Assembly: GCF_900250115.1 (NCBI RefSeq)
Contig: NZ_LT984804.1
Coordinates: forward strand, 1,999,301-2,063,300
From: Cupriavidus taiwanensis
GTDB taxonomy: Bacteria; Pseudomonadota; Gammaproteobacteria; Burkholderiales; Burkholderiaceae
Direction of reading: 5' to 3'
Length of the DNA stretch: 64,000 bases
Shown here: positions 26,475-46,695 of the stretch, one piece after another
Numbering within the stretch: the first letter of the stretch is position 1
How the letters are laid out: the number at the start of each line of letters is the position of its first letter
Notes under the pieces: generated by a model
The model's database searches: none
What the model was told of the DNA's origin: nothing
The model's input: only the letters and a program-made list of their open reading frames with translations
Made by a program: the position numbers and the translations under genes

Positions 26475-26560
26475 GATTCCATCTTACCGCAGGGGTGCGC
26501 TACGACACACCGCGGCAGGGCAGCAGGACAGACGACAGATCTGCTAACAGGAGACAAAGC

Positions 26561-27586: not shown

Positions 27587-27659
27587 GCCTGGCCCCCGGG
27601 GCGCAAGCCGCCCCGCCTTCCACCACCATCGTGGCCATCACCACATTGCGGGGACACCC

Positions 27660-28790
27660 ATGGAAATGACCAGCGCCAAGTTCGTCGCCACGCGCGCCGG
27701 CAGCGTGCCCGCCCTCGAGATCCGGGGCGTGCGCAAGGAATTCGAATCGTTCAGCGCCCTGCGGCATATCGACCTGACCGTCTACCAGGGCGAGATGCTG
27801 TGCTTCCTCGGCCCGTCGGGCTGCGGCAAGACCACGCTGCTGCGCATCATCGCCGGACTGGAGAAGCAGACCGCCGGCACCATCCTCCAGAGCGGGCGCG
27901 ACATTTCCGCCCTGCCTCCCGCCAGGCGCGACTACGGCATCGTGTTCCAGTCGTACGCCCTGTTCCCCAACCTCACGATCGCCGATAACGTGGCCTACGG
28001 CCTCGCGAATCGCCGCGCCAGCCGGGCCGAGACCGCGCAGCGGGTGCAGGAACTGCTCGACCTGGTGGGCCTGCCGACCTCCGGACGCAAGTATCCCAGC
28101 CAGCTGTCGGGCGGCCAGCAGCAGCGCGTCGCGCTGGCACGGGCGCTTGCAACACGGCCCGGCCTGCTGCTGCTGGACGAACCGCTGTCGGCGCTCGATG
28201 CCCTCGAACGCGTGCGCCTGCGCGGCGAGATCCGGCGCCTGCAGCAGCAGGTGGGCGTGACCACCATCATGGTCACGCACGACCAGGAAGAAGCGCTGTC
28301 CATGGCCGACCGGATCGTCGTCATGAACCACGGCGTGATCGAGCAGGTCGGCTCGCCGCTGGAGGTATACGAAAGCCCGGCCACGCCGTTCGTGGCGGAC
28401 TTCGTCGGGCGCGTGAACGTGCTGTCCGGCACGGCGCTGGGTGGGCGGCGCTACCGCGTGGGCACGCTGGAGCTGACCTGCGAAGGCTGCAGCCGCGAGT
28501 TCGAGCCCGGCACGCCGGTCAATCTATATCTTCGCCCCGAAGACCGCCACATCGGCCAGTTCAGCCCTGACACGCCCAACCAGCTGACCGTCAACATCGA
28601 AAAGGTCGAGTTCCTCGGGGACACCTGCATGGCCGAAGCGAGCTGCGAGCAATTGCGGGAACAGTCGCTCAGCCTTCAGTTCACCCTCGACCAGTTCCAC
28701 GATCACGGTATCCGCGCCGGCCAGCCCCTGCGCATTGCGCTGCGCGCCAGCCGCATCCAGGCCTTCGCCGCAACCGGAGCAGGACGATGA
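27660..28790 (+). CDS. phnT: AEP ABC transporter ATP-binding protein, island 1
   Basis: ATPase of the AEP importer (376 residues). Walker A is GPSGCGKTT, the signature is LSGGQQQRV and Walker B is LLLLDEP; a C-terminal TOBE-like regulatory domain of about 110 residues follows. ATG 27660 has GGGGA upstream. The stop overlaps the permease start by 4 nt (ATGA), which indicates translational coupling. In the D-loop this copy reads SALDALERV, where island 2 has the commoner SALDARVRV. Confidence 0.93.
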   Translation: MEMTSAKFVATRAGSVPALEIRGVRKEFESFSALRHIDLTVYQGEMLCFLGPSGCGKTTLLRIIAGLEKQTAGTILQSGRDISALPPARRDYGIVFQSYALFPNLTIADNVAYGLANRRASRAETAQRVQELLDLVGLPTSGRKYPSQLSGGQQQRVALARALATRPGLLLLDEPLSALDALERVRLRGEIRRLQQQVGVTTIMVTHDQEEALSMADRIVVMNHGVIEQVGSPLEVYESPATPFVADFVGRVNVLSGTALGGRRYRVGTLELTCEGCSREFEPGTPVNLYLRPEDRHIGQFSPDTPNQLTVNIEKVEFLGDTCMAEASCEQLREQSLSLQFTLDQFHDHGIRAGQPLRIALRASRIQAFAATGAGR

Positions 28791-30517
28791 AAGAGATCGC
28801 GCTTTCCCAACCGCCAGAAGCCACGCATGCGGGCTGGCTGGCCAGCCGGAACTGGGACGAAATCATCGCCCGCGCGGTGCTGGCCTGCGTGCTGGCCGCG
28901 CTGTTCCTCTTCCTGCTGGCGCCGATGTGCGCCATCCTGGCTAATGCCGTGCTCGATCATGACGGCCATTTTGTCGGGCTGGCCCACTTCGCCGCCTACA
29001 TCAAGACGCCGGCGCTGATGCAGTCGGCCCGCAACTCGGTGATGCTGGCAGGCAGCGTGGTCGGCATCTCGGTACCACTGGCCTTCGTCTTCGCCTATGC
29101 GCTGACGCGCAGCACCCTGCCCGCGCCCCTGAAGGCAGTCTTCCGGCTGGTGGCACTGATTCCGCTGCTGGCGCCGTCGCTGCTTTCCGCCATCTCGTTC
29201 GTGCAGTGGTTCGGCAACCAGGGCGTGCTCAAGCCGCTGCTGGGCGGGGCCTCGATCTATGGCGCGCCGGGCATCATCATCGCGGAGGTTTACAACACCT
29301 TCCCCCATGCATTGATGATCCTCGTCACGGCGCTGTCGCTGGCTGACGGCCGCCTCTACGAGGCCGCCAGCGCCCTCGGCGCCAGCACCTCGCGCAAGTT
29401 CTTCACCGTGACGCTGCCCTCCTGCAAGTACGGGCTGATCAGCGCGGCGACGGTGACCTTCACCTATGTCATCTCCGACTTCGGCGCGCCCAAGGTGATC
29501 GGCGGCGACTTCAACGTGCTGTCCATCGACGTCTTCAAGCAGGTCATCGGCCAGCACAATTTTTCGATGGGCGCGGTGGTGGGCATGCTGCTGCTGATCC
29601 CGTCCGTACTCTCCTTCATGATCGATACAGTGGTGCGCCGCAAGCTGCGCGCCCAGCTCACAGCGCGTTCGGTGCCCTATGCGCCCAAGCCCAATGCCTG
29701 GGTCAACGCGCTGCTGGGCGGCTACTGCGCGTTGATCTGCGCCCTGCTGCTGGCCGTGGTCGGGATGGCGGTCTATACCTCGCTGATCAAGCTGTGGCCA
29801 TACGACCTGACGCTCGGCCTGCAGAACTACCGCATCGTGCTGTTCGAGAGCGACATGGCGGGCGCCTACAAGAACAGCCTGGTGCTGGCAGGCGTCACGG
29901 CGCTGAGCGGCTCGCTCATCGTCTTCACGGGGGCCTACCTGATCGAGAAGACCCGCAACCTCGGGCTGATGCGGCCGGTCATGCATTTCCTGGCGGTGCT
30001 GTCGATGGCCGTCCCCGGCCTGGTGCTTGGCCTGGGCTACGTGATCTTCTTCAACCACCCGGCGAACCCGCTCAACTTCCTTTACAACACGATGATCCTG
30101 GTGATCCAGTCGACCATCATCCATTACTACACCTCCAGCCACCTGACGGCCATCACCGCGCTCAAGCAGATCGACAACGAGTTCGAGGCGGTGTCGGCCT
30201 CGCTCAAGGTGCCGCAGTGGCGCACCTTCCTGCGGGTCACGCTGCCGGTATGCCTGCCGGCGGTGCTGGACATCGCCCGGTATTACTTCGTGGTGTCGAT
30301 GGCCACCCTGTCCTGCGTGATCTTTCTCTATACCCCGGAAACCATCCTCGCCTCCGTCGCCATCATGCACATGGACGATGCCGGCGACATCGGCCCCGCA
30401 GCGGCCCTGGCCAGCCTGATCGTGCTGACGTCCACCGCCATCTGCCTGGTCTACGCCCTTTGCACCCGCGTGCTGCTGCGACGCACGCAGGCCTGGCGTG
30501 ACCTGGCCCGCCGCTGA
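28787..30517 (+). CDS. phnU: AEP ABC transporter fused permease, island 1
   Basis: Inner-membrane permease of 576 residues with two binding-protein-dependent transport domains in one chain, about 12 predicted helices. The two halves carry EAA-type loops ([20 protein letters not shown] and [21 protein letters not shown]). This fused form replaces separate PhnU and PhnV partners. The start ATGA overlaps the phnT stop. It is followed by phnW after 55 bp. Confidence 0.92.
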
Positions 30518-30572
30518 GCCCCTCTTTTCGACATCTTTCCGACAGACCAACACCCGACATCAGGAGACACCC

Positions 30573-31700
30573 ATGACCGCCGCGCCCTACCCTATCCTGC
30601 TGACCCCCGGCCCCCTCACCACCTCGGACCGCACCCGCGCGGCCATGCTGCGCGACTGGGGCTCGTGGGACACTGACTTCAACGCCATTACCGCCCGCAT
30701 CCGCGAGCAGGTGCTGGCGATCGTGCACGGCACAGGCACGCACGAATGCGTGCCCCTGCAAGGCAGCGGCACCTTTTCCGTGGAAGCCGCCATCGGCACG
30801 CTGGTGCCGCGCGACGGCCATGTGCTGGTGCCGGTGAACGGCGCCTACTGCCAGCGCATCGCCAGGATCTGCAAGACCATTGGCCGGCGCCTGTCCACCA
30901 TCGAATATGCGGAGGACCGGCCAATGCGGGCCTCGGACATCGACCGCCTGCTGGCGGCGGACCCCTCCATCACCCACGTCGCCGTGGTCCACTGCGAAAC
31001 CGGCACCGGCGTGCTCAATCCGCTGGACGAGATCGCCCAAGTGGTGGCCCGGCATGGGCGCGGACTGATCGTCGATGCCATGAGCTCATTCGGCGCGATC
31101 GACATCGACGCTCGCACCACCCCGTTCGACGCCGTTATTGCCGCCTCCGGCAAATGCCTGGAAGGGGTGCCCGGCATGGGCTTCGTGATCGCCCGGCGTA
31201 CCGCGCTGGAACGCTGCGAAGGCAACAGTCCCTCCCTTTCACTCGACCTCTATGACCAGTGGAAATACATGGAGCGAACCACGCAGTGGCGCTTCACGCC
31301 ACCGACGCATGTGGTCGCGGCGCTTGACCAGGCGCTCCAGCAATATGTGGAAGAAGGCGGACTCCCCGCACGCGGCGCGCGCTACACGCGCAACTGCGCG
31401 CTGCTGGTGGCCGGCATGGAAGCGCTCGGCCTGAAGCCCTACCTGGAGCGCAAGGTGCAGGCGCCGATCATCGTCACCTTCCACGCACCAGCCGACCCCC
31501 GCTACGACTTCAAGACCTTCTACCAGGCTGTCAAGCAGCGCGGCTACATCCTGTATCCGGGCAAGCTGACCGAGATCGACACCTTCCGGGTGGGATGCAT
31601 CGGCCATTTCGGCGACGCCGGCATCCCCGGCGCGGTGAAAGCCATCGGCGAAGTCCTGGCCGGGATGGGCGTCGAGATCGGCGCATCCGTCGCCGCCTGA
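30573..31700 (+). CDS. phnW: PhnW, 2-aminoethylphosphonate-pyruvate transaminase, island 1
   Basis: PLP enzyme (375 residues) that transfers the amino group of AEP to pyruvate, giving phosphonoacetaldehyde and L-alanine. The PLP lysine is K194 in [14 protein letters not shown] and the PLP-nitrogen aspartate is D168 in [10 protein letters not shown]; the N-terminal [10 protein letters not shown] binds phosphate. The ATG lies downstream of CAGGAGACAC. It ends the transporter unit and is followed by a strong hairpin at 31759-31790. It is highly similar to the copy at 58388-59521. Confidence 0.95.
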
Positions 31701-32734: not shown

Positions 32735-34972
<2,238 letters not shown>

Positions 34973-35866
34973 TGCTTCTCTCAGATCCTCTATCGGTGGG
35001 TGGGACTTCTGCCTGCCGGGTCACGGTCAGGGCAACAAACTAGGCGAAAAATAGAATTTTGCCTCAGTTTGCTTTCAGGAATCTGAAAATCTACGCCGTC
35101 AAGTCCTTTTCTCTCACCCCTGGCCACCCGGCAAGCCCCCTTTGCAGCGCGCTTCGTCGTCACTGTCGGCCGTCCGGACGCTGCCGGACGATGTTTTAAG
35201 TGACACTTTTATCTGATCTGCACGAAGTTTCATCCGAGCAACCAAATGCACCGCGCTCCACCCGAACTCCATTACCCCAAAAGAACGAGTCGGCTTGGAG
35301 TCCGCACAAGGGATCGCTTTCGTCTATCCGCCGTTTGCCGTGGCATGGGCGCCGAGCCGCGCACATTTCGGCCCTAGCCAGGCGTTGTCCTGGCACGCGG
35401 CCCCCGTGTGATCCGCCACGCGAGGCATCACAAGACTGGTGCACTCCGGAAACCCGGCAAACGTTTCAGTTCGGAAACGTCGTATCTGGCAAAAAGTAAA
35501 CCATGAAGCATTAAGTTGCCATTTCTGGCGTCATATTCGGATTGCTGACGCGGCGCCCCGGGCAACGCGCCTGCCGGTAGCGTGTATTTCCTACTCCATT
35601 TTGTTACAGCCCTGCAACTCCCGGGACAAGGGACTGGCCGGATGTCGCTGGCGTAAACGCCCGGATCCTGACGGATCAAGGATTGCAGCCCGCTGGCACA
35701 GCCATCGCTATGCCCTCGCTCAGGATGGGCACGCGTATCCGTCGAGCCGCGCGGACCGATCCCGCCCGCTTGGCGCCGTCCCCATGCAAGGCGCGATGCC
35801 AGGCCCGACACTGCCCCTCTCGAAAAACCAGCGGCAGCATCCGCCGACAAGACCAAAGAGACCGAC
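34973..35866. other. 894-bp intergenic region between icd and the polysaccharide operon
   Basis: No supported gene. It holds the icd upstream region (AT-richer around 35040-35095, dyad TTTCAG-N4-CTGAAA) and a second perfect dyad, ACGTTTC-N6-GAAACGT, at 35461-35480, placed about 390 bp ahead of wecB. The stretch from 35173 to 35520 is lower in GC than its neighbours. It probably contains the promoter and a long leader of the rightward operon. Short frames in it lack ribosome sites and known relatives. Confidence 0.55.
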
Positions 35867-37045
35867 ATGCCGAAGAAAGTCCTGGCTGTATTCGGAACCC
35901 GCCCGGAAGCCATCAAGATGGCGCCGCTGATTCATCGCCTGAAGGCCTCGGACCGCTTTGAGTTGCGGGTCTGCGTGACCGGACAGCATCGCGAGATGCT
36001 GGACCAGGTACTGCGGCTGTTCGAGATCGAACCGGATTACGATCTCAACGTCATCAGCCATGGCCAGAGCCTGAGCGACATCACCACGCGCGTGCTTTCA
36101 GGCGTGCATGCGGTGCTCGATCAATACTTGCCCGATGCGGTGCTGGTCCATGGCGATACCACCACCACCCTGGCGGCCACCCTCGCTGCCTTTTACCGCA
36201 ATGTCGCAGTCGGGCATGTCGAGGCAGGACTGCGCACCGGCGACCTCAGTGCCCCCTGGCCCGAGGAGATGAACCGCCGCGTCACCGACGTGATGGCAGC
36301 CTGGCACTTCGCGCCGACGCAGCAGGCACAGGAAACCCTGCTGCGCGAGGGGGTCGACCCGATCCGGGTCAGCCTGACCGGCAACACCGGCATCGATGCG
36401 CTGCTGCAAGTCAAGGCCCGGCTGGACACCGACGTGGCGCTGCACCAGCAGCTGGCGGCGAACTACCCATTCCTGGACGGCTCGCGCCGGCTGGTGCTGG
36501 TGACAGGGCACCGGCGCGAGAACTTCGGCGCGCCTTTCGAGCGCCTGTTCACGGCACTGCGCACGCTTGCGGACCGCAACCGCGATCTGCAATTCGTCTA
36601 TCCGGTGCACCTGAACCCGCGCGTGCGCGCCCCCGTGCAGGCCATCCTGAGCGGGCATCCGGACATCCACCTGATCGAACCACAGGAGTACCTGCCTTTT
36701 GTGTTCCTGATGTCGCGGGCGCACCTGATCGTCACGGATTCCGGCGGAATCCAGGAAGAAGCGCCGGCACTCGGCAAGCCCGTGCTGGTCACGCGCGAAA
36801 CCACGGAGCGGCCCGAGGCCGTCGCCGCGGGCACGGCGCGGCTGGTCGGCTCTGATCCCGAGCGCTTGATTGCCGCCGCGGAGCAACTGCTCAATGACGA
36901 CGACGAGTATGCGTGCATGTCGCGGGCGCACAACCCATTTGGCGACGGCCGTGCCAGCGAACGCATCGTTCTCGCGCTGGAGGGCCGTGCCGCCGAGTAT
37001 TGCGGCGCGCCCGCCGGCCTGGGTACCGGCGTCACCACGCACTAG
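35867..37045 (+). CDS. wecB: UDP-N-acetylglucosamine 2-epimerase, first gene of the polysaccharide operon
   Basis: Non-hydrolysing epimerase (392 residues) interconverting UDP-GlcNAc and UDP-ManNAc. Family motifs [11 protein letters not shown] near the N-terminus, VTGHRREN in the middle and [11 protein letters not shown] plus RETTERPEA near the C-terminus are all present. It opens an eight-gene rightward unit. Because no UDP-ManNAc dehydrogenase (wecC) follows, ManNAc itself rather than ManNAcA is the likely sugar supplied to the synthase (inference). Ribosome site weak (GAGA). Confidence 0.94.
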
Positions 37046-37157
37046 CCGGCAAGGGTAGCGCACGCACGACACGCGCAACACGTCGCCCCCCGACAAGCAC
37101 ACCTCGCACCACGCTACAGCCGCGGCCGGCCTGGTCGCTTACCGCAGGAGCATCGCA

Positions 37158-37490
37158 ATGAAGCGCTCACGTATTGGAATGGCAACAGCCGTTGCACTCG
37201 CCGCGGCTCTGGCGCTGCCGACAGCCAGGGCCGCGCTGACCGAGGAAGCCACCGTGGCCCTGGCCGGAAGCCCGCTCTATCTTCCGGCCAGCCCTGCCAA
37301 TCCCGGCGGGCTGAACGGCTACGAGCACGGCAGCCAGCTCGATTTCGCTTTCGAAGCGCATGCGCCAAGCAAGAACAAGGCGCTGAAGGACAGGCTGACC
37401 AAGAAGCTCCTGAACAAGGCCGTGGCGGGCCCGAAGTTGCAAACCGGCTCTTACACGCTGGCGCCTGCGCCTGCGGCCGAACCGGACTGA
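37158..37490 (+). CDS. Small secreted hypothetical protein (110 aa)
   Basis: Unknown. A clear signal peptide (MKRSRIGMATAVALAAALAL, cleavage likely after the following PTARA) leads a mature protein of about 85 residues with a Lys-rich centre (SKNKALKDRLTKKLLNK) and an Ala/Pro tail. AGGAG is 7 nt before the ATG. It lies between wecB and the deacetylase-like gene, so it probably works in the periplasm with the polysaccharide machinery. Confidence 0.75.
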   Translation: MKRSRIGMATAVALAAALALPTARAALTEEATVALAGSPLYLPASPANPGGLNGYEHGSQLDFAFEAHAPSKNKALKDRLTKKLLNKAVAGPKLQTGSYTLAPAPAAEPD

Positions 37491-37604
37491 CGTTCCCCTT
37501 CATTGCCACGGCGCCTCGCCGCCCGGCGGCATAACGCCCCGTGCCGCAGCCGGGCGGCTGCGCACGGCAAGACCGGTTCACATTGATCGCGCTGGGAGAA
37601 GACC

Positions 37605-39443
37605 ATGCCAAACCCACTGTATGCCCTGCTGCAACGGCTGCGAAAGCACCGCGCCATGCTGTTGTTGGTCGTGGCGGCGCTGTCGCTGGCCATGCCAGCG
37701 GTGAGCCGCGCCGCCACCAACCAGATCGCGCTGCTTGTGCCGGACGGCATGGTGCTGCCCGACGCGCGCGTCTCGGCGTGGGAGGATGCCGCGCGGGAAG
37801 AAGGGTTGAAGCTGACCGTCATCAGCGATACCCAGTTGCAGCAAGGCATCACCCCGGCACAGTTCCCTGGCCTCATCCTGCCCGACCAGGTGCACGTGCA
37901 TGCCAGCGAGAACCTGATCGCCGCGCTGGAGAATTACACCAACCTGGGCGGGAAGATCATGCTGGTGTATGACTTCGGCGCGCTGACCACCACCGGCTTC
38001 TATGCGCCGCAGCGAAGCCGGCTCAGCAACCTTGCCGGCGTCGATTACGTGCTCTACGACTCCCTGCTCGGCAATATGATCGGCCTGGGGCCGGTCACGG
38101 GCCTGGGCAGCACGCTCAGGAGCATCCAGGTGCCGCCCGGCAAGTCAATGTTGTGGTCCACCAACGGCACTACCGACCAGGTGGAGGGCATTTCGGGCTA
38201 TGTCTATGGCTTCCTGACCTATCCCAGTTTTGTCACGCAAGGCACTTATACCGGATCGGCACTGCTGACATCGCCAAACTTCGGCCTGGTGGCCGGGCTG
38301 CGCAATTTCGGCTCCGGCAGCGTGCTGTTCGTCAACCTGCCGCTGTCGTACCTGAAGGGCCAGACCGACGGCATGCTGATGCACGGCTTCCTGCGCTACT
38401 TTGCCGTCAACCTGATGAAGCTGCCGCGGCTGTCGGCACAGCCCAAGGGGCGCGCCGGCCTGGTGCTGAACATGCACTTCTGCGCCGGCGACCAGATCGC
38501 GCCGGCGCTCAAGCTCAAGAACTGGGGCATCTTCAACAACGGACCATTCTCGGTTTCCGTGACCGCGGGCCCGGACCAGATCACCTTTGGCGATGGGCGC
38601 GGCATCAAGCTGTCGCAGAATGCCACGGCGCAGCAGCTGCTGCTGTTTCTGCAGTCCAAGGGCCACAAGATCGGCAGCCATGGCGGATGGATCCACGACT
38701 ACTGGGGTGCCAACGCCAGTGAATCCAACCAGGCCACGTTCCAGCAGTATCTTGAGCTGAACAAGCAAAGCGTGGAAGCAGTGACCGGGCGGCCAGCGAC
38801 GGAGTATGCCGCGCCGGAAGGGAACACCCCGCAATGGTCGGTCGACTGGCTGGAAGCCAACGGCAACACCGGATATTACTTTCTTGGCCATACCGGCATG
38901 GCGCCAACGCGCAGCTATCGCAACGGCGTGCTGACCAACCAAGGCATCCGCGCATTCCCGGTCATGCCGTTCGGCCAGTATGCGACGTTCGAGGAGTTCG
39001 ATGAGTTCAACGTGCCCGCGGGCAGCGTCACCGCCTGGTACCGGCAACTGATCGACTTCGTGGTCAAGAACCGCACCAGCCGGCTGATCTACATGCACCC
39101 GCTCGGCGCCGAGGAGTATCCGACTGTGTTGAACGCGCTGTTCAGCCGCGCCGCGACGCTGGCGCTGAACGGGCAGTTCAGCTGGTACACCATGGACACG
39201 CTGGCCAGGTTCGGGCAGCGGCGTGACCAGGTCAACTGGCAGGCCACCGACAACGGCCTCACCTGGGTATTCCAGGCCTCGCATCCGACCGACATGACTG
39301 ACATGACCTGGGTACTGCCGCGCACGGGCTTCATTCAGCCGGTGGTCACCGGCGGCCTCGGGCTCGTGACCTTCGATGCCAACAACTGGATCGTGACCTC
39401 GCTGGGCGGGACGTCGCTGACGTTTATCGCCAGCAAGCTCTGA
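37605..39443 (+). CDS. Secreted two-domain protein with polysaccharide-deacetylase-like C-terminal half
   Basis: A 612-residue exported protein (hydrophobic signal near 16-36). The N-terminal half (about 40-270) looks like a Rossmann/amidotransferase-like fold (IALLVPDGMVLPDARV, GGKIMLVYDFGA). The C-terminal half (about 280-540) has an order of motifs like NodB deacetylases: GSHGGWIHD with H359 and H364, APEG at 403-406 and YMHP with H498. The usual TFDDG motif is replaced by NMHFCAGDQ, and the histidines are spaced one residue wider than usual. A role in deacetylating the polymer is plausible but unproven. Confidence 0.7.
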   Translation: MPNPLYALLQRLRKHRAMLLLVVAALSLAMPAVSRAATNQIALLVPDGMVLPDARVSAWEDAAREEGLKLTVISDTQLQQGITPAQFPGLILPDQVHVHASENLIAALENYTNLGGKIMLVYDFGALTTTGFYAPQRSRLSNLAGVDYVLYDSLLGNMIGLGPVTGLGSTLRSIQVPPGKSMLWSTNGTTDQVEGISGYVYGFLTYPSFVTQGTYTGSALLTSPNFGLVAGLRNFGSGSVLFVNLPLSYLKGQTDGMLMHGFLRYFAVNLMKLPRLSAQPKGRAGLVLNMHFCAGDQIAPALKLKNWGIFNNGPFSVSVTAGPDQITFGDGRGIKLSQNATAQQLLLFLQSKGHKIGSHGGWIHDYWGANASESNQATFQQYLELNKQSVEAVTGRPATEYAAPEGNTPQWSVDWLEANGNTGYYFLGHTGMAPTRSYRNGVLTNQGIRAFPVMPFGQYATFEEFDEFNVPAGSVTAWYRQLIDFVVKNRTSRLIYMHPLGAEEYPTVLNALFSRAATLALNGQFSWYTMDTLARFGQRRDQVNWQATDNGLTWVFQASHPTDMTDMTWVLPRTGFIQPVVTGGLGLVTFDANNWIVTSLGGTSLTFIASKL

Positions 39444-39538
39444 TACGCAAGCACGCGCGGGACGACACGCTTGCCGGCGCACATGGCAGCGCACCGGCAA
39501 GCGCCTGCCGCCCATCATGCACTTGAGGATTGTCGTCC

Positions 39539-41113
39539 ATGCGCCTGACCCATCGCTGGTTGCTGCCGCTGTGCGGATTGCTCGCAGGCAACATCGCCAT
39601 GCCGCTGCAGGCGGCCGACCTGCCGCGTCGCGGCGACACCCTGGTCCGTGAAGCGGGCGCTGCCCAGCCCTTGTCCGCGCCTGTGACCCAGGCCATTGCG
39701 GGCAACATCCCCGACCCCGGCGCGCAATCCGTGGCGCTGGCGAGCGCTTTCGTCGATACCCTGCCCGCCGACGCGCTGGAGCCGGCCGACCCGGCCGCAC
39801 GGACGTGGCCGCTTGCACCATCGGGCCAGCCCCCCATGCCGGCAGACGGGCACGCCATGGTCACGCTGCTCGCCGGCATGCTGGCGCTGATCGTCGCACT
39901 GGTGGTGTTCTATGCGGTGCGGCATTACGTGTTCACACTGAACCGCCTGTTCGGCAAGCAACGCCACCCCTATCTCGACATCGATATCGCTGACTGGCCG
40001 AGGCTGACGGTGATGGTCGCCGCGCATAACGAAGAAGCCGTGATCGCCGGTTCTCTGGCCTGCCTGCTGCGGGCCGACTACCCGGCCGACCGCCTCACCA
40101 TCATGCCGGTCAACGACCGCTCCGCCGACCGCACCCGCGAGATCATCGACGCGATCGTGGCACAGCACCCCGGCCGCATCACGCCGTTCCACCGTACCGG
40201 CGGCAAACCGGGCAAGGCCGCGGCCCTGAAGGATGCGTGCGAGACTGTGACCAGCGAGATCATCGTCGTCTTCGACGCTGACTACCTGCCGCCGATCGGC
40301 TTGCTCAAGCAACTGGTAGCGCCGTTCTTCGATCCGGAAGTGGGTGCCACCATGGGGCGGGTGGTGCCGATGAACCTGAGTAGCAACCTGCTGACGCGAC
40401 TGCTGGATCTCGAGCGCTCCGGCGGCTATCAGGTCGACCAGCAGGCGCGCATGAACCTGAACCTGGTGCCGCAATATGGCGGCACCGTGGGCGGCATCCG
40501 CATGCGTGCTCTGCGCAGCGCCGGCGGCTGGCACGACGACGTGCTGGCCGAGGACACCGACCTGACCTACCGCCTGCTGCTGGCCAACTGGAAGACTGTC
40601 TACCAGAACTGGTCCGAATGCTATGAGGAGGTGCCCGAGAGCTGGCCCGTGCGGGTCCGGCAGATCAAGCGCTGGACCAAGGGGCACAACCAGGCGCTGT
40701 ACCGGCACGCATGGAAGTTGACGCGCTGCCGTGATCACGGCCTGCTTGAGAAGATCGACGGCCTGGCGCTGCTGGGCATCTACATGATGGCGCCGGTAAT
40801 GCTGGCGGGCTGGCTGCTGGCAATCCTGCTGTTCTATGCCGGCGGACTGCCGTTGCTGAGCGATACGCTGATCCTGTTCGCCCTGATGTCGTACGGGACG
40901 CTGGGCAACTTTGCCGCGTTCTTCGAGATTGCGGCGGCGGTGTACCTGGACGGCAGCCGCGCTCGCATCTGCCTGCTGCCGCTGAATTACTTCGGCTTTC
41001 TGGTGAGCGTACTGGCCGTATCGCGGGCGATCGCCGACCAGGTGGTGCTGGACCCGCTGCTGCGCCGCGAGATGCGCTGGGACAAGACCACGCGTTACCG
41101 ACAGGGGAGCTGA
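39539..41113 (+). CDS. Membrane glycosyltransferase family 2 (polysaccharide synthase-like)
   Basis: A 524-residue processive-type GT2. It starts with a signal-like segment and an Ala/Pro-rich region of about 80 residues outside the membrane, then a helix at about 108-130. The catalytic domain follows: VAAHNEE at 169-175, FDADY at 255-259, AEDTD at 347-351 and QIKRW at 385-389. Three or more C-terminal helices are seen. The QxxRW motif marks chain-forming synthases such as PgaC, HasA and BcsA. ATG 39539 is chosen, with GAGG 10 nt upstream. No PilZ domain is visible. Confidence 0.87.
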   Translation: MRLTHRWLLPLCGLLAGNIAMPLQAADLPRRGDTLVREAGAAQPLSAPVTQAIAGNIPDPGAQSVALASAFVDTLPADALEPADPAARTWPLAPSGQPPMPADGHAMVTLLAGMLALIVALVVFYAVRHYVFTLNRLFGKQRHPYLDIDIADWPRLTVMVAAHNEEAVIAGSLACLLRADYPADRLTIMPVNDRSADRTREIIDAIVAQHPGRITPFHRTGGKPGKAAALKDACETVTSEIIVVFDADYLPPIGLLKQLVAPFFDPEVGATMGRVVPMNLSSNLLTRLLDLERSGGYQVDQQARMNLNLVPQYGGTVGGIRMRALRSAGGWHDDVLAEDTDLTYRLLLANWKTVYQNWSECYEEVPESWPVRVRQIKRWTKGHNQALYRHAWKLTRCRDHGLLEKIDGLALLGIYMMAPVMLAGWLLAILLFYAGGLPLLSDTLILFALMSYGTLGNFAAFFEIAAAVYLDGSRARICLLPLNYFGFLVSVLAVSRAIADQVVLDPLLRREMRWDKTTRYRQGS

Positions 41114-41115
41114 CC

Positions 41116-42204
41116 GTGTGGCCCCTGACCCTTGCGTTGCTGACCTTGCTGGTGCTGGCACTGCCGTTGACGCCGGCACTGCTGGAATGGCGCCGGCAAC
41201 GCGATATTGGCCCGCTGCCCATCGATGGCGAACACACCCTGGATGTTGGTGCCGTGGCAGCCGGCTTTCGGGCGCTGCTGACTGCGCAGCCGGTGCTGCC
41301 AGGGCAAGCGGCCAGGGCCACGCCCGATCTTTCGCTGGAGCCGCTGGTGCGCGTGAACGGCGCCTTCGTGCCGAGCCCGGCCGAGTCGGCCGTCGGCCTG
41401 TGCGCCCGCACCATCGTGGGTGCCGAAGCCGTGCTGCTCCCCGATGATTACGCGTTTGCACGCGACATCTATGGCCGGCGCAGCATTCGCACCGGACAGC
41501 GCAACCGCCTGCAGGGACTTCTCTCCGACGGCGGCATCGTCATGGCAGCAGGCAGTGAACTGCGGCGCTGGGCCCATGCCAGCCACGTGCACGTGGGCGA
41601 ACGCTGCCGCCTGCTGGGTCCGGTCGGTGCGCTGCAATCGATCCGACTGGAGGCAGGCTGCCGCTTCGCGTCGGTCAGCGCGCCGGTGGTCCGTTTCGGA
41701 CGTGCCGGCGGCGCCGATGGCACCGCGGCCAGCCGCTACGCCGGAGCGCCGGCGGGCGAGCTCTCACCCGCCGAAGCGAGGGATGGTCGCTGGCTGGTGG
41801 CGCAAGACTTCACCTTTCCCGCCAACAGGCTGTATCGCGGCGACCTGGTGGTCCATGGCAACTTGCGGATCGGCACCGGCGCTCACATTGCCGGCAGTGT
41901 CAAGGCGAGTGGCAGCATTCGGCTGGAAGCCGGCGCCCGCATCGGTGGCGCCCTGATTGCCGGGGCTGCCATCTCGGTGGAACAAGGCTGCGCCATCGGC
42001 GGGCCGGTCGCCGCCGAGTGCGAGATCCGGCTGGCCCGGTTCTGCGTCATCGGCTCGCCTGACCGGCACACCACCGTGGTGGCGCCCATGCTGCTGGCGC
42101 GCGTCGGCGCCACGGTACACGGCGCCGCCTCGGCCCTGGAGCTTGGGCGCGTCGAATCGGACAGCGACGCTGCCACCGCCAAGGATCATCCATGCCCGCC
42201 ATAA
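41116..42204 (+). CDS. Membrane-anchored bactofilin-like repeat protein
   Basis: A 362-residue protein with one N-terminal helix (WPLTLALLTLLVLALPLTPALL), a less regular middle, and a C-terminal stretch (about 235-340) of short hydrophobic/Gly repeats (GDLVVHGNLRIGTGAHIAGS, IGGALIAGAAISVEQG, IGGPVAAECEIRLA) typical of the right-handed beta-helix of bactofilins/polymer-forming proteins. GTG start two bases after the synthase stop, with GGGGAG upstream. Its end overlaps the next gene by 13 nt. It may form a scaffold holding the synthase; this role is inferred. Confidence 0.7.
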   Translation: MWPLTLALLTLLVLALPLTPALLEWRRQRDIGPLPIDGEHTLDVGAVAAGFRALLTAQPVLPGQAARATPDLSLEPLVRVNGAFVPSPAESAVGLCARTIVGAEAVLLPDDYAFARDIYGRRSIRTGQRNRLQGLLSDGGIVMAAGSELRRWAHASHVHVGERCRLLGPVGALQSIRLEAGCRFASVSAPVVRFGRAGGADGTAASRYAGAPAGELSPAEARDGRWLVAQDFTFPANRLYRGDLVVHGNLRIGTGAHIAGSVKASGSIRLEAGARIGGALIAGAAISVEQGCAIGGPVAAECEIRLARFCVIGSPDRHTTVVAPMLLARVGATVHGAASALELGRVESDSDAATAKDHPCPP

Positions 42205-43202
42205 ACGTTGTGTTCACCCTGCTGGTGGCGCTCGCCGCCCTCCTGCCCGCCCACGCCGCCACCGCCGAGCTTGCGCTGCCGGGCTACCAACGGTCAGATG
42301 GCGCCATCACGACATACCTGGGCGGCGACTCGATCGACCCCTACTTCGCGGCCAAGGCCCTGCTGGCGGCACAGGATGCCGGCATGATCACCGGCACCGC
42401 GGCCCGCAACTGGATCGCGTGGCAATTGCCACGCCAGCACGTCGACGGCCGCTTCGACCGCTATTGCCTGAAGGGACAACACTTTGCCGCGTGCCAGGCC
42501 GCCGATGCCGACGACGCGCTGATGGCGGCCTGGATGGAACTGCTGGTCCGCACCGCCCCGGCCAAGGGCATGCCGCCCGCGTGGCAAGCCAGCTTCGACA
42601 CGGCAGCCCGCTACCTCGACACGCTGCGGGACGGCCGCACCGGCGTCTACCACATCTCCCGCACACTGCCGGTGGCGCTGCTGATGGACAACGTCGAGGT
42701 TTCCAGCGCGTTCAAGGCGGCCAGCCGCTACCGCCAGAGTCTGGGCGACAGCCGGGGCGCCGCGGCCTGGGCACGCCAGGCCGAACAGCTGGACCAAGCC
42801 ATCCTGCGCGTGTTCTGGCGCAACGGCGTCTTCCTGGTCAGCACCCAGCCACGCGAGCGCAGCGAGTTCTATCCCGATGCGGTGGCGCAGATCTTCCCCA
42901 TCCTGGCCGATATCCAGGCTCCCGGCCGTCCGCACGACAGCGCCTACCGGGCGTGGATGACAACGTATCGCTTCGCGTGGCTGCAAATGTCCGAGGTGGA
43001 TTTCCCGTGGGGGCTGGTGGCGCTGGTGGCCGACAAGATGGGCGACGCCGACGCGATCACCTGCTGGCGCGTGCGCTCGAACCAGTTCCGCCACGGCCAC
43101 CACTGGAATGTCCTGGAAGAGGCGCTGTTTCTCGCCTTCGAGGCCAGGCTCGCGCCGGCGCAGGCGCTTGCGCCACCGGCGGCCAGCCTGCGCTGCCGAT
43201 AA
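42192..43202 (+). CDS. Exported helical-barrel glycosidase-like protein
   Basis: A 336-residue protein with a signal peptide (1 to about 22). The rest is helical with repeated Trp/Tyr-Ala patterns suggesting an (alpha/alpha)6 barrel. The stretch AADADDALMAAWMELL at 103-118 resembles the acidic motif of GH8-type enzymes such as BcsZ, but the family could not be assigned. In synthase-dependent systems a periplasmic hydrolase or lyase trims the polymer, and this gene sits where one is expected. Start overlaps the previous gene; AAGGAT precedes the ATG. Confidence 0.62.
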   Translation: MPAINVVFTLLVALAALLPAHAATAELALPGYQRSDGAITTYLGGDSIDPYFAAKALLAAQDAGMITGTAARNWIAWQLPRQHVDGRFDRYCLKGQHFAACQAADADDALMAAWMELLVRTAPAKGMPPAWQASFDTAARYLDTLRDGRTGVYHISRTLPVALLMDNVEVSSAFKAASRYRQSLGDSRGAAAWARQAEQLDQAILRVFWRNGVFLVSTQPRERSEFYPDAVAQIFPILADIQAPGRPHDSAYRAWMTTYRFAWLQMSEVDFPWGLVALVADKMGDADAITCWRVRSNQFRHGHHWNVLEEALFLAFEARLAPAQALAPPAASLRCR

Positions 43203-43407
43203 CACGGCAACGCAGGGGCGCGGCGGCAAGGCAAGCGACCGGCGCGCCCGGATAGCATTTCAGAGCTGCAACACACCACCAAAATGACGAGGCATGGCGG
43301 ATCGACGCATCGCCCCGGTCCGGTGTATGGTGCAAACGCTGCTGCCGCATCGGGCGGTCTCCAACGACCGTCCACCGGAAATACCTATAAGCACGACAGG
43401 AGGCAAC

Positions 43408-44247
43408 GTGAAGCTACCGGACGCCAGATACTTCGGTGCACAGTCCCTTGCCTGCCTGCTCGGCGTGCTGGCACTGGCGGCTTGCCCGCACGCCCGGGCC
43501 CAGGCCGAGGCCACCGCGCCCCGGACCTTCGTCCCGTTGCTGAGGGGCTTTATCGAAGGCGGCCTGGGCCACGCCAACCTGACCGGCGACAACGACAGCT
43601 GGAATGACCAGTATCTGCGCGGCGGGGTGCACCTGTCCGCCGACGACTACGTCACCGGCGAAATCAGCCACCAGCGGCACTTTGGCGACCAGGGCACCTT
43701 CTTCGGCCTCGGCTACACCCGCAACTTCAATGAGGACTGGTACGGCTTCCTGAGCGCCGGCACCAGCGCGGGCGGCTTTTTCCTGCCAGAGTTCCGCGTC
43801 GACGGCATGCTGTTCCGCAAATTTCTTGACAAGAAGAACCTGGTGGCCAGCGCCGGCTTCACTTACTACCGGGCCAAGGAAATCTATACCGACAAGACGC
43901 TGCTGCTCGGCCTGACCTACTACTTCGACGCTCCGTGGATCGTGCAGCTCGGCGCGCGCCTGAACCGCAGCGACCCGGGCAACGTCCGCTCCAACCGCGG
44001 CGTGGCCGCCATCATTTACGGCCGTGACAAAGACCAGTACATCACCCTCAAGTACGACGGCGGGCGCGAAGCCTATCAGCTGACCGGCGCCCAGTCGCTG
44101 CTGAGCGACTTTACCAGCCATGAGGTCACACTGACGTGGCGCAAGTGGTTCAACAAGCGTTACGGCATGAACCTGCGCGCCATCTATTACGAGAACCCGT
44201 CGTACCGGCGCAAGCAAGCGGAGATCGGCTTCTTCGTCGAGTTCTGA
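43408..44247 (+). CDS. YaiO-like outer-membrane beta-barrel protein
   Basis: A 279-residue protein with an N-terminal signal (hydrophobic core near 12-26, end at HARAQAEA) and a C-terminal barrel of alternating aromatic strands (GFIEGGLGHANLTGDNDSW, YVTGEISHQRHFGDQGTFFG) ending in FFVEF, a terminal aromatic typical of outer-membrane proteins. It matches the YaiO family in plan. GTG 43408 follows AGGAGG. It probably provides the exit path or an outer-membrane partner for the polymer. The 205-bp gap before it may hold a second promoter. Confidence 0.78.
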   Translation: MKLPDARYFGAQSLACLLGVLALAACPHARAQAEATAPRTFVPLLRGFIEGGLGHANLTGDNDSWNDQYLRGGVHLSADDYVTGEISHQRHFGDQGTFFGLGYTRNFNEDWYGFLSAGTSAGGFFLPEFRVDGMLFRKFLDKKNLVASAGFTYYRAKEIYTDKTLLLGLTYYFDAPWIVQLGARLNRSDPGNVRSNRGVAAIIYGRDKDQYITLKYDGGREAYQLTGAQSLLSDFTSHEVTLTWRKWFNKRYGMNLRAIYYENPSYRRKQAEIGFFVEF

Positions 44248-44249
44248 CC

Positions 44250-45068
44250 ATGCCACGCCAGGCCGGCGATCCCACTGCCGACCCGTCCCCAGCAAGGGAC
44301 AAGGGCGATGCACTCGGCCTGGCAACGCTGTACCATGCCCGGCAGCGATCGCTGGACCGCCTGATACTGAGCCTGCCCACGCTTGCCGCGATCCCGCTGG
44401 TAGCGGCCGCCTTCAACGCCGCCGAGTGGATGCTGCGCGGCAAGCTGAGCGCAGCCTGGGCCGCCGTGCTGGCCTTCTGGATCGACAAGCTGCGCCTGGA
44501 GGGCACCGTGGCCGAGCGCATCGCGCCGCTAGGCTGGTTCGACCTGCCCCTTCCATACGTCAGTGTCTCCGTCGCGATGCCCGACACGCTGACATGGTGG
44601 CTGACGCTGGGTGGCACACTGGCGGTCGCGCTGCTGGCGCTGCGCCTGCGTGACCACTATCTTCCGCTGCGCTATTTCATGTTGTTCGCGGTGTTCGTGC
44701 AGGCCACCGCGCTGCTGTTCTTCGCGGTGGCCCCACATAGTTTTCCGTATAGCGCGAGCAGCTACATGGACAACGGCCTCAAGACCTCCTGCGGCCTTCT
44801 CTGGCTGCTGCCGTGGGCGCATGCGCTGACGTACAACATCTTCGGCTTTGCGTGGTGGAAAAAGGTATCCCTGACGCTGCTGACACTGGCGTTCGTGGTG
44901 GTCGCCGTACCGTTGCAGCTGGCGCTGCACCTGTACATCCTGACCTGCTGCTCGCTGCTGATGATGCCGTTGCTGTCCTTTGTATTGGGGCCGACCGTGA
45001 TAGTAGCGGGATGCATTGCGCTGTACGGATGGGCCATGAGCTGGAAGCGTACTGGCGAGCGCCCGTAG
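44250..45068 (+). CDS. Integral membrane protein (about 7 helices), last gene of the polysaccharide operon
   Basis: A 272-residue inner-membrane protein of unknown family. Hydrophobic segments occur near LILSLPTLAAIPLVAAAF, WWLTLGGTLAVALLAL, YFMLFAVFVQATALLFF, GLLWLLPWAHALTYNIF and VSLTLLTLAFVVVAVPL. ATG 44250 begins two bases after the stop of the barrel gene, so the two are coupled. Possible roles are synthase partner, acyl-transfer or lipid-linked step; nothing in the sequence decides among them. Confidence 0.72.
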   Translation: MPRQAGDPTADPSPARDKGDALGLATLYHARQRSLDRLILSLPTLAAIPLVAAAFNAAEWMLRGKLSAAWAAVLAFWIDKLRLEGTVAERIAPLGWFDLPLPYVSVSVAMPDTLTWWLTLGGTLAVALLALRLRDHYLPLRYFMLFAVFVQATALLFFAVAPHSFPYSASSYMDNGLKTSCGLLWLLPWAHALTYNIFGFAWWKKVSLTLLTLAFVVVAVPLQLALHLYILTCCSLLMMPLLSFVLGPTVIVAGCIALYGWAMSWKRTGERP

Positions 45069-45153
45069 TGTCAGCGTGCCGCTGTAACGGAGGCTTGCTG
45101 GGCAGGCGCCCTTCTTCCGGACTGGCGGAAAAAGGGTAACCGCTAGCCGGCCG

Positions 45154-46695
45154 CTACGCCGCCAGCCTGAACGTCGCCACTGCTTCCTTCAGCCGCTGCG
45201 CCTGCTCCTCCAGCGAACCCGCCGCCGCCGCGGCCTGTTCCACCAGCGCCGCGTTCTGCTGCGTCACCGTATCCATCTGCGTCACCGCCTGGTTCACCTG
45301 CTCGATGCCCGAGCTCTGCTCGGCCGACGCGGCACTGATCTCGCCCATGATGTCGGTCACGCGCCGGACCGCGGCGACGATCTCTGCCATGGTCTGGCCC
45401 GACTGCGTCACCAGCATCGAGCCCTTTTCGACGCGATCGGCCGAATCGCCGATCAGCGCCTTGATCTCCCTGGCCGCGGTCGCGCTGCGCTGCGCCAGCG
45501 TGCGCACCTCGCCCGCCACCACCGCAAAGCCCCGGCCCTGCTCGCCGGCGCGCGCCGCCTCCACCGCGGCGTTGAGCGCCAGGATATTGGTCTGGAACGC
45601 AATACCCTCGATCACGGCGATGATGTCGACCACCTTCTTCGACGCGCCATTGATCTCCTCCATGGTCTCGGCCACCTTGCCCGCGACTTCACCGCCCATG
45701 GCGGCGATATCCGAGGCATTGACCGCGAGCGTGCTGGCCTGGCGCGCGTTGTCGGCGTTCTGGCGCACGATGCTGGTCAGCTCTTCCATGCTTGCCGCGG
45801 TCTGCTGCAGCGACGAGGCCTGTTCCTCGGTGCGCTGCGACAGGTCGGTATTGCCGGCCGCGATCTGGCTGGTGCCAGACACGATCGATTCGGTGCCGGC
45901 GCGCACCTGGCGCACGATGCGCAGGATATTGGCGTTCATGTCGGCCAAGGCCTGCAGCAGCTGGCCGGTCTCATCGCGGCGGTCGACGTCAATGCGGCTG
46001 GTCAGGTCGCCCGACGCCACGGTGCGGGCCACGGCCACGGCGCGATGCAGCGGGCGCGTGATGCCGCTGGTGAGCCAGACCGAGAAGGCAATGCCGATCC
46101 CCAGCACCACCACGCCCAGCCCGATCAGGCTGTTGCGCGCATTGACGTAGATGGCATTGATCTCGCGCGCGGTGGCGTCGATGCTGGCGCGCTGGATGTC
46201 GAGCAGCTTCTGGATCTCGGCCAGGTAGGCGTCGCCGGCGGGCACGAACTCCTTTTCCAGCACCAGGTTGGCTTCCTCGGTCAGGCCTTCCTGCTTGAGC
46301 TTCGTGATCTTGTCGCGGCCGTTGTTGTAGGGGTCGCGCACGCTCAGGATCTTCTGGAACGCGGCCTTTTCCTGCTCGGAGCTGAGCATCGGCTGCAGCT
46401 TGTCGCGCAGCTGCGCAATGCCTTCGATCGACGCCTTGGTCTCGGCGGCAAAGAACTGGCCCAGCGACGGGTCGGCGCTGCGCGCCACCGCGGTGGTGCG
46501 GCGCACGCTGGTATGCATGAGGCGGTACCAGTCGCTGACCAGCCGCTCCTTGGTCAGCGGCTGCTGCATCATCGCGTGCGTGCGCTCGGCCACCTGCTGC
46601 AGGCGCAGCATGCCCAGGCCAGTCATCAGCGCCGCAAGCAGCAAAACCACCCCAAAACCGATGCCGAGGCGAACCCCGATACCTAGATTCTTCAT
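45154..46695 (-). CDS. Methyl-accepting chemotaxis protein
   Basis: A 513-residue chemoreceptor. TM1 lies at about 5-30, a four-helix-bundle sensor domain follows, TM2 ([21 protein letters not shown]) at about 188-208, then HAMP ([21 protein letters not shown]) and the cytoplasmic hairpin with tip [20 protein letters not shown]. No CheB/CheR-binding pentapeptide is seen at the C-terminus. ATG 46695 is preferred because AGGTAGAAGAA lies just upstream; a GTG at 46722 would be longer. Ligand unknown; it converges with the polysaccharide operon. Confidence 0.93.

What the first reader, a model, noticed from the sequence alone, without database searches (positions are those of the whole stretch)
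35867..45068. Eight-gene synthase-dependent polysaccharide operon of unfamiliar composition
Seen: UDP-GlcNAc 2-epimerase, small secreted protein, two-domain deacetylase-like protein, QxxRW GT2 synthase with an exported N-terminal region, bactofilin-like protein, exported helical-barrel protein, YaiO-like barrel and a polytopic membrane protein, mostly with tight or overlapping junctions. Known: pga, bcs, alg and pel systems each pair a synthase with periplasmic modifiers and an outer-membrane exit. Inferred: this is a separate system, perhaps making a ManNAc- or GlcNAc-based polymer. It has no PilZ domain, no Pga-type TPR porin and no wecC.
Basis: partly seen in the sequence, partly recalled or inferred. 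Interest (0 to 1): 0.78.

Follow-up and report, generated by a model that had tools for sequence, protein, structure and literature searches.

The report
Unstudied ManNAc-type slime-sugar export operon
This Cupriavidus operon is one copy of a conserved but, as far as the searches show, unstudied gene set that appears to make, modify and export an amino-sugar polymer through an unusual outer-membrane barrel; related sets were found in Burkholderia, Acidobacteria, methane oxidisers and an Escherichia plasmid.

Summary
In detail: eight same-strand genes at 35867-45068, with one correction (only 3 of 7 junctions are tight; the others are 95-205 bp). The genus is Cupriavidus. A six-gene core (WecB-type UDP-GlcNAc 2-epimerase, QxxRW GT2 synthase, membrane-anchored bactofilin-like protein, exported alpha/alpha-barrel protein, YaiO barrel, polytopic membrane protein) recurs complete in 15 of 15 relatives' loci, 35 of 47 loci seeded by the barrel protein, and 12 of 12 fetched loci seeded by the synthase (sets overlap). 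Hosts include Burkholderia, Acidobacteria, Methylococcaceae, an E. fergusonii conjugative plasmid and an E. coli chromosome. Deacetylase-like and small secreted genes are accessory; a Burkholderia fusion suggests their products act together. A glmS paralogue beside many copies, plus WecB, points to an amino-sugar polymer, most likely with ManNAc. No PilZ or TPR domain was found, the synthase falls below Pga and Bcs cut-offs and is far from NfrB, and ten paper searches did not show this set characterised. Best reading: a new variant of synthase-dependent exopolysaccharide systems with a YaiO barrel as exit. Sugar, export route and deacetylase activity are inferred, not shown.

The parts
35867..37045 (+). 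wecB-type non-hydrolysing UDP-GlcNAc 2-epimerase (UDP-GlcNAc to UDP-ManNAc); core gene
   Evidence: TIGR00236 492.5 bits, cut-off 210.15; only wecB match in the genome; within 8 kb of the barrel gene at 19 of 20 places in 60 Cupriavidus genomes
37158..37490 (+). small secreted protein, accessory; probable partner of the next gene product
   Evidence: no family; its profile matches an insert inside the deacetylase-like protein of Burkholderia/Paraburkholderia, 13 of 13 full-length ones in the set, 23-43 bits, best of 880 shuffled controls 5.3
37605..39443 (+). exported protein with a NodB/polysaccharide-deacetylase-like C-terminal part; accessory
   Evidence: PF01522 at threshold; 10 of 16 family members match PF01522 at E<=0.01; H291 and H364 in 50 of 50, H359 in 48 of 50, position 293 Asp in 28 and Cys in 22 of 50 incl. 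this copy
39539..41113 (+). processive-type GT2 polysaccharide synthase, inner membrane, DxD / ED / QxxRW; core gene
   Evidence: PF13641 101 bits; these motifs invariant in 21 of 21; one hydrophobic segment before and about three after the catalytic part; N-terminal ~100 residues not conserved
41116..42204 (+). bactofilin-like protein with one N-terminal membrane segment; core gene
   Evidence: PF04519 at E<=0.01 in 27 of 30 family members, though this copy is below cut-off; hydrophobic segment 4-22
42192..43202 (+). exported (alpha/alpha) barrel protein of the glycoside-hydrolase kind; core gene
43408..44247 (+). YaiO-family outer-membrane beta-barrel, proposed polymer exit; core gene
   Evidence: TIGR04390 201 bits, cut-off 32; only YaiO match in the genome
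44250..45068 (+). polytopic inner-membrane protein of unknown family; core gene
   Evidence: no Pfam family at E<=0.1 in the window copy, and only one chance-level match among 22 family members; about five hydrophobic segments, two of them overlapping

Best explanation
The operon encodes a complete synthase-dependent exopolysaccharide system. WecB turns UDP-GlcNAc into UDP-ManNAc; the inner-membrane GT2 polymerises an N-acetylhexosamine chain, most likely containing ManNAc, and pushes it into the periplasm; the membrane-anchored bactofilin-like protein and the polytopic protein form the synthase/periplasmic assembly; the deacetylase-like protein with its small partner modifies the chain, and the alpha/alpha-barrel protein trims or clears it; the YaiO barrel lets it out, without the TPR porin of the classical systems. 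Shown here: gene content, conservation as a unit, family relations, barrel fold (model), small/deacetylase fusion elsewhere. Inferred: sugar, direction of export, role of each accessory protein, enzyme activities.
For: Six core genes together in 15 of 15 loci from relatives, seeded by the bactofilin-like protein; 35 of 47 loci seeded by the barrel protein; 12 of 12 fetched loci seeded by the synthase, out of 35 other genomes that hold it (five of the 12 were seen before). Same six in an E. fergusonii IncI1/B/O conjugative plasmid and an E. coli chromosome, with an acyltransferase in place of the deacetylase-like gene. Different gene orders keep the same set. The icd/mcp flanks recur in only 2 of 23 loci compared, so the unit moves. 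wecB lies within 8 kb of the barrel gene at 19 of 20 places in 60 Cupriavidus genomes, the 20th lying at a contig edge, and is the only one in this genome. glmS paralogue beside 22 of 23 Burkholderia loci and some others. GT2 motifs invariant. Precedent: NfrB plus WecB proposed to make a ManNAc polymer (PMC8669469, PMC8669472, passages).
Against: No biochemical data. Distances of wecB follow the barrel gene (rho 0.75) rather than the synthase (0.29), while synthase, bactofilin-like, YaiO and membrane protein follow each other (0.69-0.81). Ten Burkholderia loci keep wecB, barrel gene and glmS with the synthase block absent, so wecB there has another use or is left over. wecB occurs in 17 of 43 Cupriavidus genomes without the barrel gene, so it is not exclusive to the cassette. 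wecB is split by frameshifts at three of 20 Cupriavidus places. The deacetylase-like protein carries Cys where 28 of 50 relatives have Asp, and the gene is missing from 5 of the 35 complete loci. YaiO as a polymer pore is untested.
Confidence: 0.62

Rival explanations
1. The polymer is a GlcNAc homopolymer (PNAG- or chitin-like) made by a diverged PgaC-like synthase; WecB only tunes the UDP-GlcNAc pool or serves another glycan.
For: PgaC is the nearest of the three E. coli synthases compared (127 bits to the family profile); glmS supplies UDP-GlcNAc too; wecB evolves apart from the synthase; wecB also occurs without the cassette.
Against: wecB is found at every synthase locus examined (15, 12, 35 of 36, the exception L076 running off its contig) and is the only copy in this genome; no PgaB relative and no PgaA-like TPR part in the cassette.
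Confidence: 0.18
2. The cassette makes a non-amino-sugar chain (for example glucan) and the wecB-barrel pair belongs to a different, neighbouring pathway.
For: wecB, barrel gene and glmS persist without the synthase block in 10 Burkholderia loci; two co-varying groups of genes.
Against: In the Acidobacteria, Alphaproteobacteria and Methylococcaceae loci and on the Escherichia plasmid, wecB and the barrel gene are interleaved with or contiguous to the synthase genes on one strand.
Confidence: 0.1
3. The products decorate a cell-bound structure (lipid- or protein-linked glycan, sheath, cell wall) rather than release an exopolysaccharide.
For: The bactofilin-like protein could be a structural scaffold; no secretion assay exists.
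Against: Processive-type GT2 motifs, and no lipid-carrier initiating transferase or flippase family matched among the eight genes; the unknown membrane protein leaves a gap in this argument.
Confidence: 0.06
4. The copy in this window is cryptic or decaying.
For: No sigma-70-like promoter match in 34900-45300 (0 found, 1.1 expected by shuffling); wecB is broken at three related places.
Against: All eight frames are open here, and three of the proteins are 86, 89 and 92% identical to their best other database match; the promoter scan covers only one promoter type.
Confidence: 0.04

Closest known systems
NGR / NfrB-NfrA-YbcH with WecB (E. coli phage N4 glycan receptor; PMC8669469, PMC8669472, passages read)
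   Same: GT2 synthase plus WecB, proposed ManNAc-based polymer, outer-membrane barrel, wecB beside the synthase gene where no other copy exists
   Different: NfrB scores only 12.6 bits to this GT2 family; [quoted passage not shown] the nfr operon is nfrB-nfrA-ybcH, without bactofilin-like, alpha/alpha-barrel or YaiO genes
Listeria monocytogenes Pss exopolysaccharide (beta-1,4-ManNAc with galactose; PMC6307706 and PMC7479077, passages; original paper not read)
   Same: ManNAc polymer with a deacetylase (PssB) and an (alpha/alpha)6 glycosidase (PssZ)
   Different: Gram-positive, so no outer-membrane part; c-di-GMP regulation by the title of the original paper; PssZ is a weak fold match to the barrel protein (TMq 0.35); PssC was not compared
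pgaABCD (poly-beta-1,6-GlcNAc)
   Same: synthase, deacetylase and outer-membrane barrel genes in one operon
   Different: PgaC/IcaA score 108 against cut-off 422; no TPR match; no similarity of the deacetylase-like protein to PgaB
E. coli yaiO-yaiX-yaiP-yaiS locus
   Same: YaiO-family barrel beside a GT2, a deacetylase and an LbetaH-domain protein, by annotation
   Different: YaiP scores only 44 bits and E. coli YaiO gives no match to the family profiles; YaiS is annotated PIG-L deacetylase, YaiX acetyltransferase; no wecB, alpha/alpha-barrel or further membrane protein annotated in that locus

Membership tests
Synthase-dependent exopolysaccharide systems (general) | inner-membrane processive GT2 synthase | tested here: met
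   GT2 Pfam families; DxD, ED and QxxRW invariant in 21 of 21; processivity itself not tested
Synthase-dependent exopolysaccharide systems (general) | c-di-GMP-binding domain or co-polymerase subunit | tested here: inconclusive
   no PilZ or MshEN match in the eight proteins; the unknown membrane protein could play that part
Synthase-dependent exopolysaccharide systems (general) | TPR domain with outer-membrane pore | tested here: not met
   no TPR family at E<=0.1 in any of the eight; a YaiO barrel is present instead
PNAG (pga) | PgaC/IcaA-family synthase | tested here: not met
   TIGR03937 108 bits, cut-off 422
PNAG (pga) | PgaB two-domain deacetylase/hydrolase | tested here: not met
   hhalign of the 50-member profile with PgaB: probability 0.2, E 0.37
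Cellulose (bcs) | BcsA with PilZ | tested here: not met
   TIGR03030 43 bits, cut-off 699; no PilZ match
NGR/Nfr | NfrB-family GT2 with MshEN domain | tested here: not met
   NfrB 12.6 bits to the family profile; no MshEN match
NGR/Nfr | dependence on WecB | not testable with these tools
   only genomic association: 19 of 20 places
Listeria Pss | poly-beta-1,4-ManNAc product and PssC-type synthase | not tested
   no chemistry; PssC not fetched
YaiO barrel family | TIGR04390 / PF19413 above cut-off | tested here: met
   201 bits (cut-off 32) and 115 bits (cut-off 23.9)
Bactofilin (PF04519) | score above Pfam cut-off | tested here: not met
   window copy 17.8 bits, cut-off 27.9; 27 of 30 aligned members match at E<=0.01, hence 'bactofilin-like'
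CE4/NodB deacetylases (PF01522) | profile match | tested here: met
   23.2 bits, cut-off 23.1: barely
CE4/NodB deacetylases (PF01522) | metal-binding Asp-His-His triad (recalled) | tested here: inconclusive
   H359 in 48 of 50 and H364 in 50 of 50, but position 293 is Cys here and in 21 others; the mapping of these positions to the triad is my reading, and the structure job failed
Non-hydrolysing UDP-GlcNAc 2-epimerase (WecB) | TIGR00236 above cut-off | tested here: met
   492.5 bits, cut-off 210.15

The most novel reading that the evidence does not exclude
This is a distinct class of trans-envelope polysaccharide machine: a membrane-anchored, polymer-forming bactofilin-like beta-helix protein replaces the TPR scaffold and bridges a UDP-ManNAc-using GT2 synthase to a small YaiO barrel, giving a Gram-negative ManNAc exopolysaccharide secretion system with a dedicated precursor supply (WecB, in some lineages also GlmS).
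Probability: 0.3. Interest if true: 0.85.

Novelty: new variant of a known kind. Interest (0 to 1): 0.6.

Why it matters
PMC7112194 (passages) lists five identified synthase-dependent exopolysaccharides and describes a TPR-plus-pore arrangement as typical of Gram-negative systems. This cassette shows neither a TPR part nor a recognised synthase family, yet the same core is found from Acidobacteria to an Escherichia conjugative plasmid. If it works as proposed, it adds a polymer and an export design, gives YaiO-family barrels a job, and makes the ManNAc-polymer idea behind the phage receptor NGR testable with a self-contained gene set. The clean presence or absence of the synthase block among Burkholderia genomes also offers natural comparisons.

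Tried and rejected
Considered and rejected: a pga variant (synthase and PgaB tests not met); a bcs variant; an nfr system; the yai locus; the B. pseudomallei bec cluster, whose paper reports group-1 glycosyltransferase, periplasmic export and UDP-glucose lipid-carrier genes (PMC5507470, passages; also the review PMC9899790, passages); the Rubrivivax psc1 locus, a wza/wzy/wzx cluster with epsC and nodB (PMC3684757, passages); a Janthinobacterium list with wecB and a deacetylase beside epsH and a tyrosine kinase (PMC5080296, passages).

Led nowhere: profile searches of the deacetylase-like protein against PDB sequences (none at E<=1; four chance-level matches); PHROGs for two proteins (none); Pfam for 22 membrane-protein relatives; promoter scan (0 found, 1.1 expected); a search for recurrent further neighbours (25 of the groups printed), in which glmS was the only one I could link to the pathway. 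The second deacetylase-like copies of the two Methylococcaceae loci do not match the small-protein profile (0.7 and 1.9 bits).

Print search: the ten counted paper searches were made; 'not shown as characterised' rests on these listings, on passages of the papers named here, and on that library only, which lacks most subscription-journal papers.
Full report
What is there. Eight + strand genes fill 35867-45068 between a monomeric isocitrate dehydrogenase gene and a chemoreceptor gene, both on the - strand. In order: wecB; a 110-residue secreted protein; an exported protein with a marginal polysaccharide-deacetylase match; a GT2 synthase; a bactofilin-like protein with one N-terminal hydrophobic segment; an exported barrel protein; a YaiO-family barrel; a polytopic membrane protein. 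The nearest named relatives are Cupriavidus (81% for the bactofilin-like protein; 89% for the barrel protein); the window lies on contig C2 of a 7.0 Mb, three-contig genome.

It is a unit. A search of 60 genomes of relatives, own included, with the bactofilin-like protein found it in 13. Of the 15 loci then fetched from the 12 others, all 15 carry wecB, GT2, bactofilin-like, barrel, YaiO and membrane-protein genes (wecB in two pieces in L014 and L020, YaiO in pieces in L023), and 14 the deacetylase-like gene. One genome has three copies and one has two. A scan of named genomes with 50 aligned barrel proteins gave 47 loci: 35 hold all six core genes (L036, L038 and L040 with wecB in pieces, L036 also the GT2; in L067 wecB is cut by the contig start), 10 Burkholderia loci hold only wecB and the barrel gene, and 2 run off their contigs (L032, L076). 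Of the 35, 30 have the deacetylase-like gene. Since that scan was seeded by a core gene, I repeated the test with the synthase as seed: 34 of 299 genomes of the family and 4 of 398 of the phylum sample carry it, own genome included in both. I fetched 12 of the 35 distinct other genomes' loci; all 12 carry the six core genes, 10 of 12 the deacetylase-like gene.

Gene orders differ while the set stays: wecB-small-deacetylase-GT2-bactofilin-barrel-YaiO-membrane in Cupriavidus; wecB on the other strand, then GT2-bactofilin-YaiO-membrane-deacetylase-barrel in Burkholderia; wecB-GT2-bactofilin-barrel-deacetylase-YaiO-membrane in Acidobacteria; GT2-bactofilin-barrel-wecB-YaiO-membrane in Alphaproteobacteria. 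A conjugative IncI1/B/O plasmid of Escherichia fergusonii and the chromosome of E. coli AH19B041 hold bactofilin-like, wecB, YaiO, membrane protein, acyltransferase, barrel and GT2. Among complete E. coli genomes a nucleotide match to the plasmid set (15% of it covered) appears in 2 of 5426; I looked at one of the two. The icd and mcp flanks recur in only 2 of 23 loci compared, most of them Cupriavidus, so the cassette sits at different places.

Precursor supply. WecB is the only such match in this genome. In 60 Cupriavidus genomes the barrel gene occurs strongly (E<1e-50) at 20 places in 17 genomes, and 19 of the 20 have wecB within 8 kb on the same contig; the other lies at a contig edge with wecB on a different contig. 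Four weaker barrel-gene matches (E 1e-10 to 6e-8) were left out of this count. wecB also occurs in 17 of the 43 genomes without the barrel gene, one of them a weak match, so it is not exclusive. In 22 of 23 Burkholderia loci the gene after the barrel gene is a glmS (TIGR01135 773 bits in L044); the four Burkholderia genomes checked have four full-length glmS each. glmS neighbours also appear in C. pauculus (L020/L040, one genome), in a split form in L023, and in L094 and L095; the window copy has none. GlmS and WecB lie on the established route to UDP-GlcNAc and UDP-ManNAc. No dehydrogenase lies in the cassette; the genome has one nucleotide-sugar dehydrogenase over cut-off, on another contig.

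The synthase. DxD, ED and QxxRW residues are invariant in 21 of 21. Its nearest solved relatives by sequence are a family 2 glycosyltransferase (6yv7) and cellulose synthases. To the family profile the plasmid and E. coli members score 604 and 630 bits, PgaC 127, YaiP 44, NfrB 13.

The deacetylase-like protein and the small protein. PF01522 matches 10 of 16 relatives at E<=0.01, the window copy by 0.1 bits over cut-off. Several His are invariant or nearly so, but the position where I expect the metal-binding Asp is Cys in 22 of 50. So 'deacetylase' is a lead. The small protein is more telling: its profile hits an insert in 13 of 13 full-length deacetylase-like proteins of Burkholderia and Paraburkholderia at 23-43 bits, while the best of 880 shuffled sequences reaches 5.3 (the split L059 gene was left out). 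What is one protein there is two neighbouring genes here, which suggests they work together.

Results that cut the other way. Pairwise distances over 36 loci fall into two groups: GT2, bactofilin-like, YaiO and membrane protein (rho 0.69-0.81) and wecB with barrel (0.75), with 0.28-0.53 between groups (the loci are related and mostly Cupriavidus and Burkholderia, so these are descriptive). In 10 Burkholderia loci the GT2-to-deacetylase block (about 7.3 kb in L044) is absent; in the 8 of these 10 that I aligned with L044, the wecB side is 83.0-88.4% and the barrel-glmS side 87.6-90.5% identical. No remnant is found in the 10 loci and no such GT2 elsewhere in these 10 genomes, while both positive controls ring. 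So wecB, the barrel gene and glmS can persist alone; they may serve another glycan, be left over, or act on neighbours' polymer. At three of 20 Cupriavidus places wecB is split by frameshifts, by error or decay.

Comparison with known systems. PMC7112194 (passages) describes Gram-negative synthase-dependent operons as synthase, c-di-GMP part, periplasmic modifiers and TPR-plus-pore, and lists five polymers. This cassette has the first and likely the third, and lacks a recognised second and fourth. It works most like NGR (GT2 plus WecB; PMC8669469 and PMC8669472, passages) and like Listeria Pss (ManNAc polymer with deacetylase and alpha/alpha-barrel glycosidase; PMC6307706 and PMC7479077, passages), but does not meet the tests made for Nfr, Pga and Bcs, and was not compared with PssC. 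Ten paper searches did not show the set as characterised; of 41 papers naming YaiO, the 30 listed look from titles and abstract starts to be largely detection or genomics work on E. coli and other bacteria.

Verdict. A real, conserved, mobile exopolysaccharide cassette of uncharacterised type: a new variant of a known kind. My estimate that it is a dedicated polysaccharide synthesis-and-export system is about 0.85; that ManNAc is in the polymer about 0.65; that YaiO is the exit about 0.65; the combined statement, 0.62, is given as a reading of the main line (synthesis, amino sugar, export), since these are correlated.

Noticed in passing
L045, L047, L048, L050, L053, L057, L058, L060, L061, L072 (Burkholderia): The synthase block is absent while wecB, the barrel gene and glmS remain: natural presence/absence among close relatives, or a retained hydrolase without the polymer system.
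   Followed up: partly
L080 (NZ_CP057682.1) and L085 (NZ_CP196316.1): A variant cassette with an acyltransferase instead of the deacetylase-like gene lies on an E. fergusonii conjugative plasmid and on an E. coli chromosome, in both within about 12 kb of fimbria-type genes.
   Followed up: partly
L014/L038, L020/L040 and genome G076 contig 102: wecB of the cassette is split by frameshifts; sequencing errors and decay were not told apart.
   Followed up: no
L022, L023, L026 (genome G007): One Cupriavidus genome carries three cassettes, one of a different gene order; the YaiO gene of L023 is split.
   Followed up: no
L062:15708-18701 and L065:16089-19013: Two Methylococcaceae loci have a second, longer deacetylase-like gene (ORFs of 997 and 974 residues) after the membrane-protein gene.
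   Followed up: no
window 26495-31700: A 2-aminoethylphosphonate transport (PhnS2, PhnT2, PhnU2) and PhnW-type transaminase gene group passing NCBIfam cut-offs.
   Followed up: no
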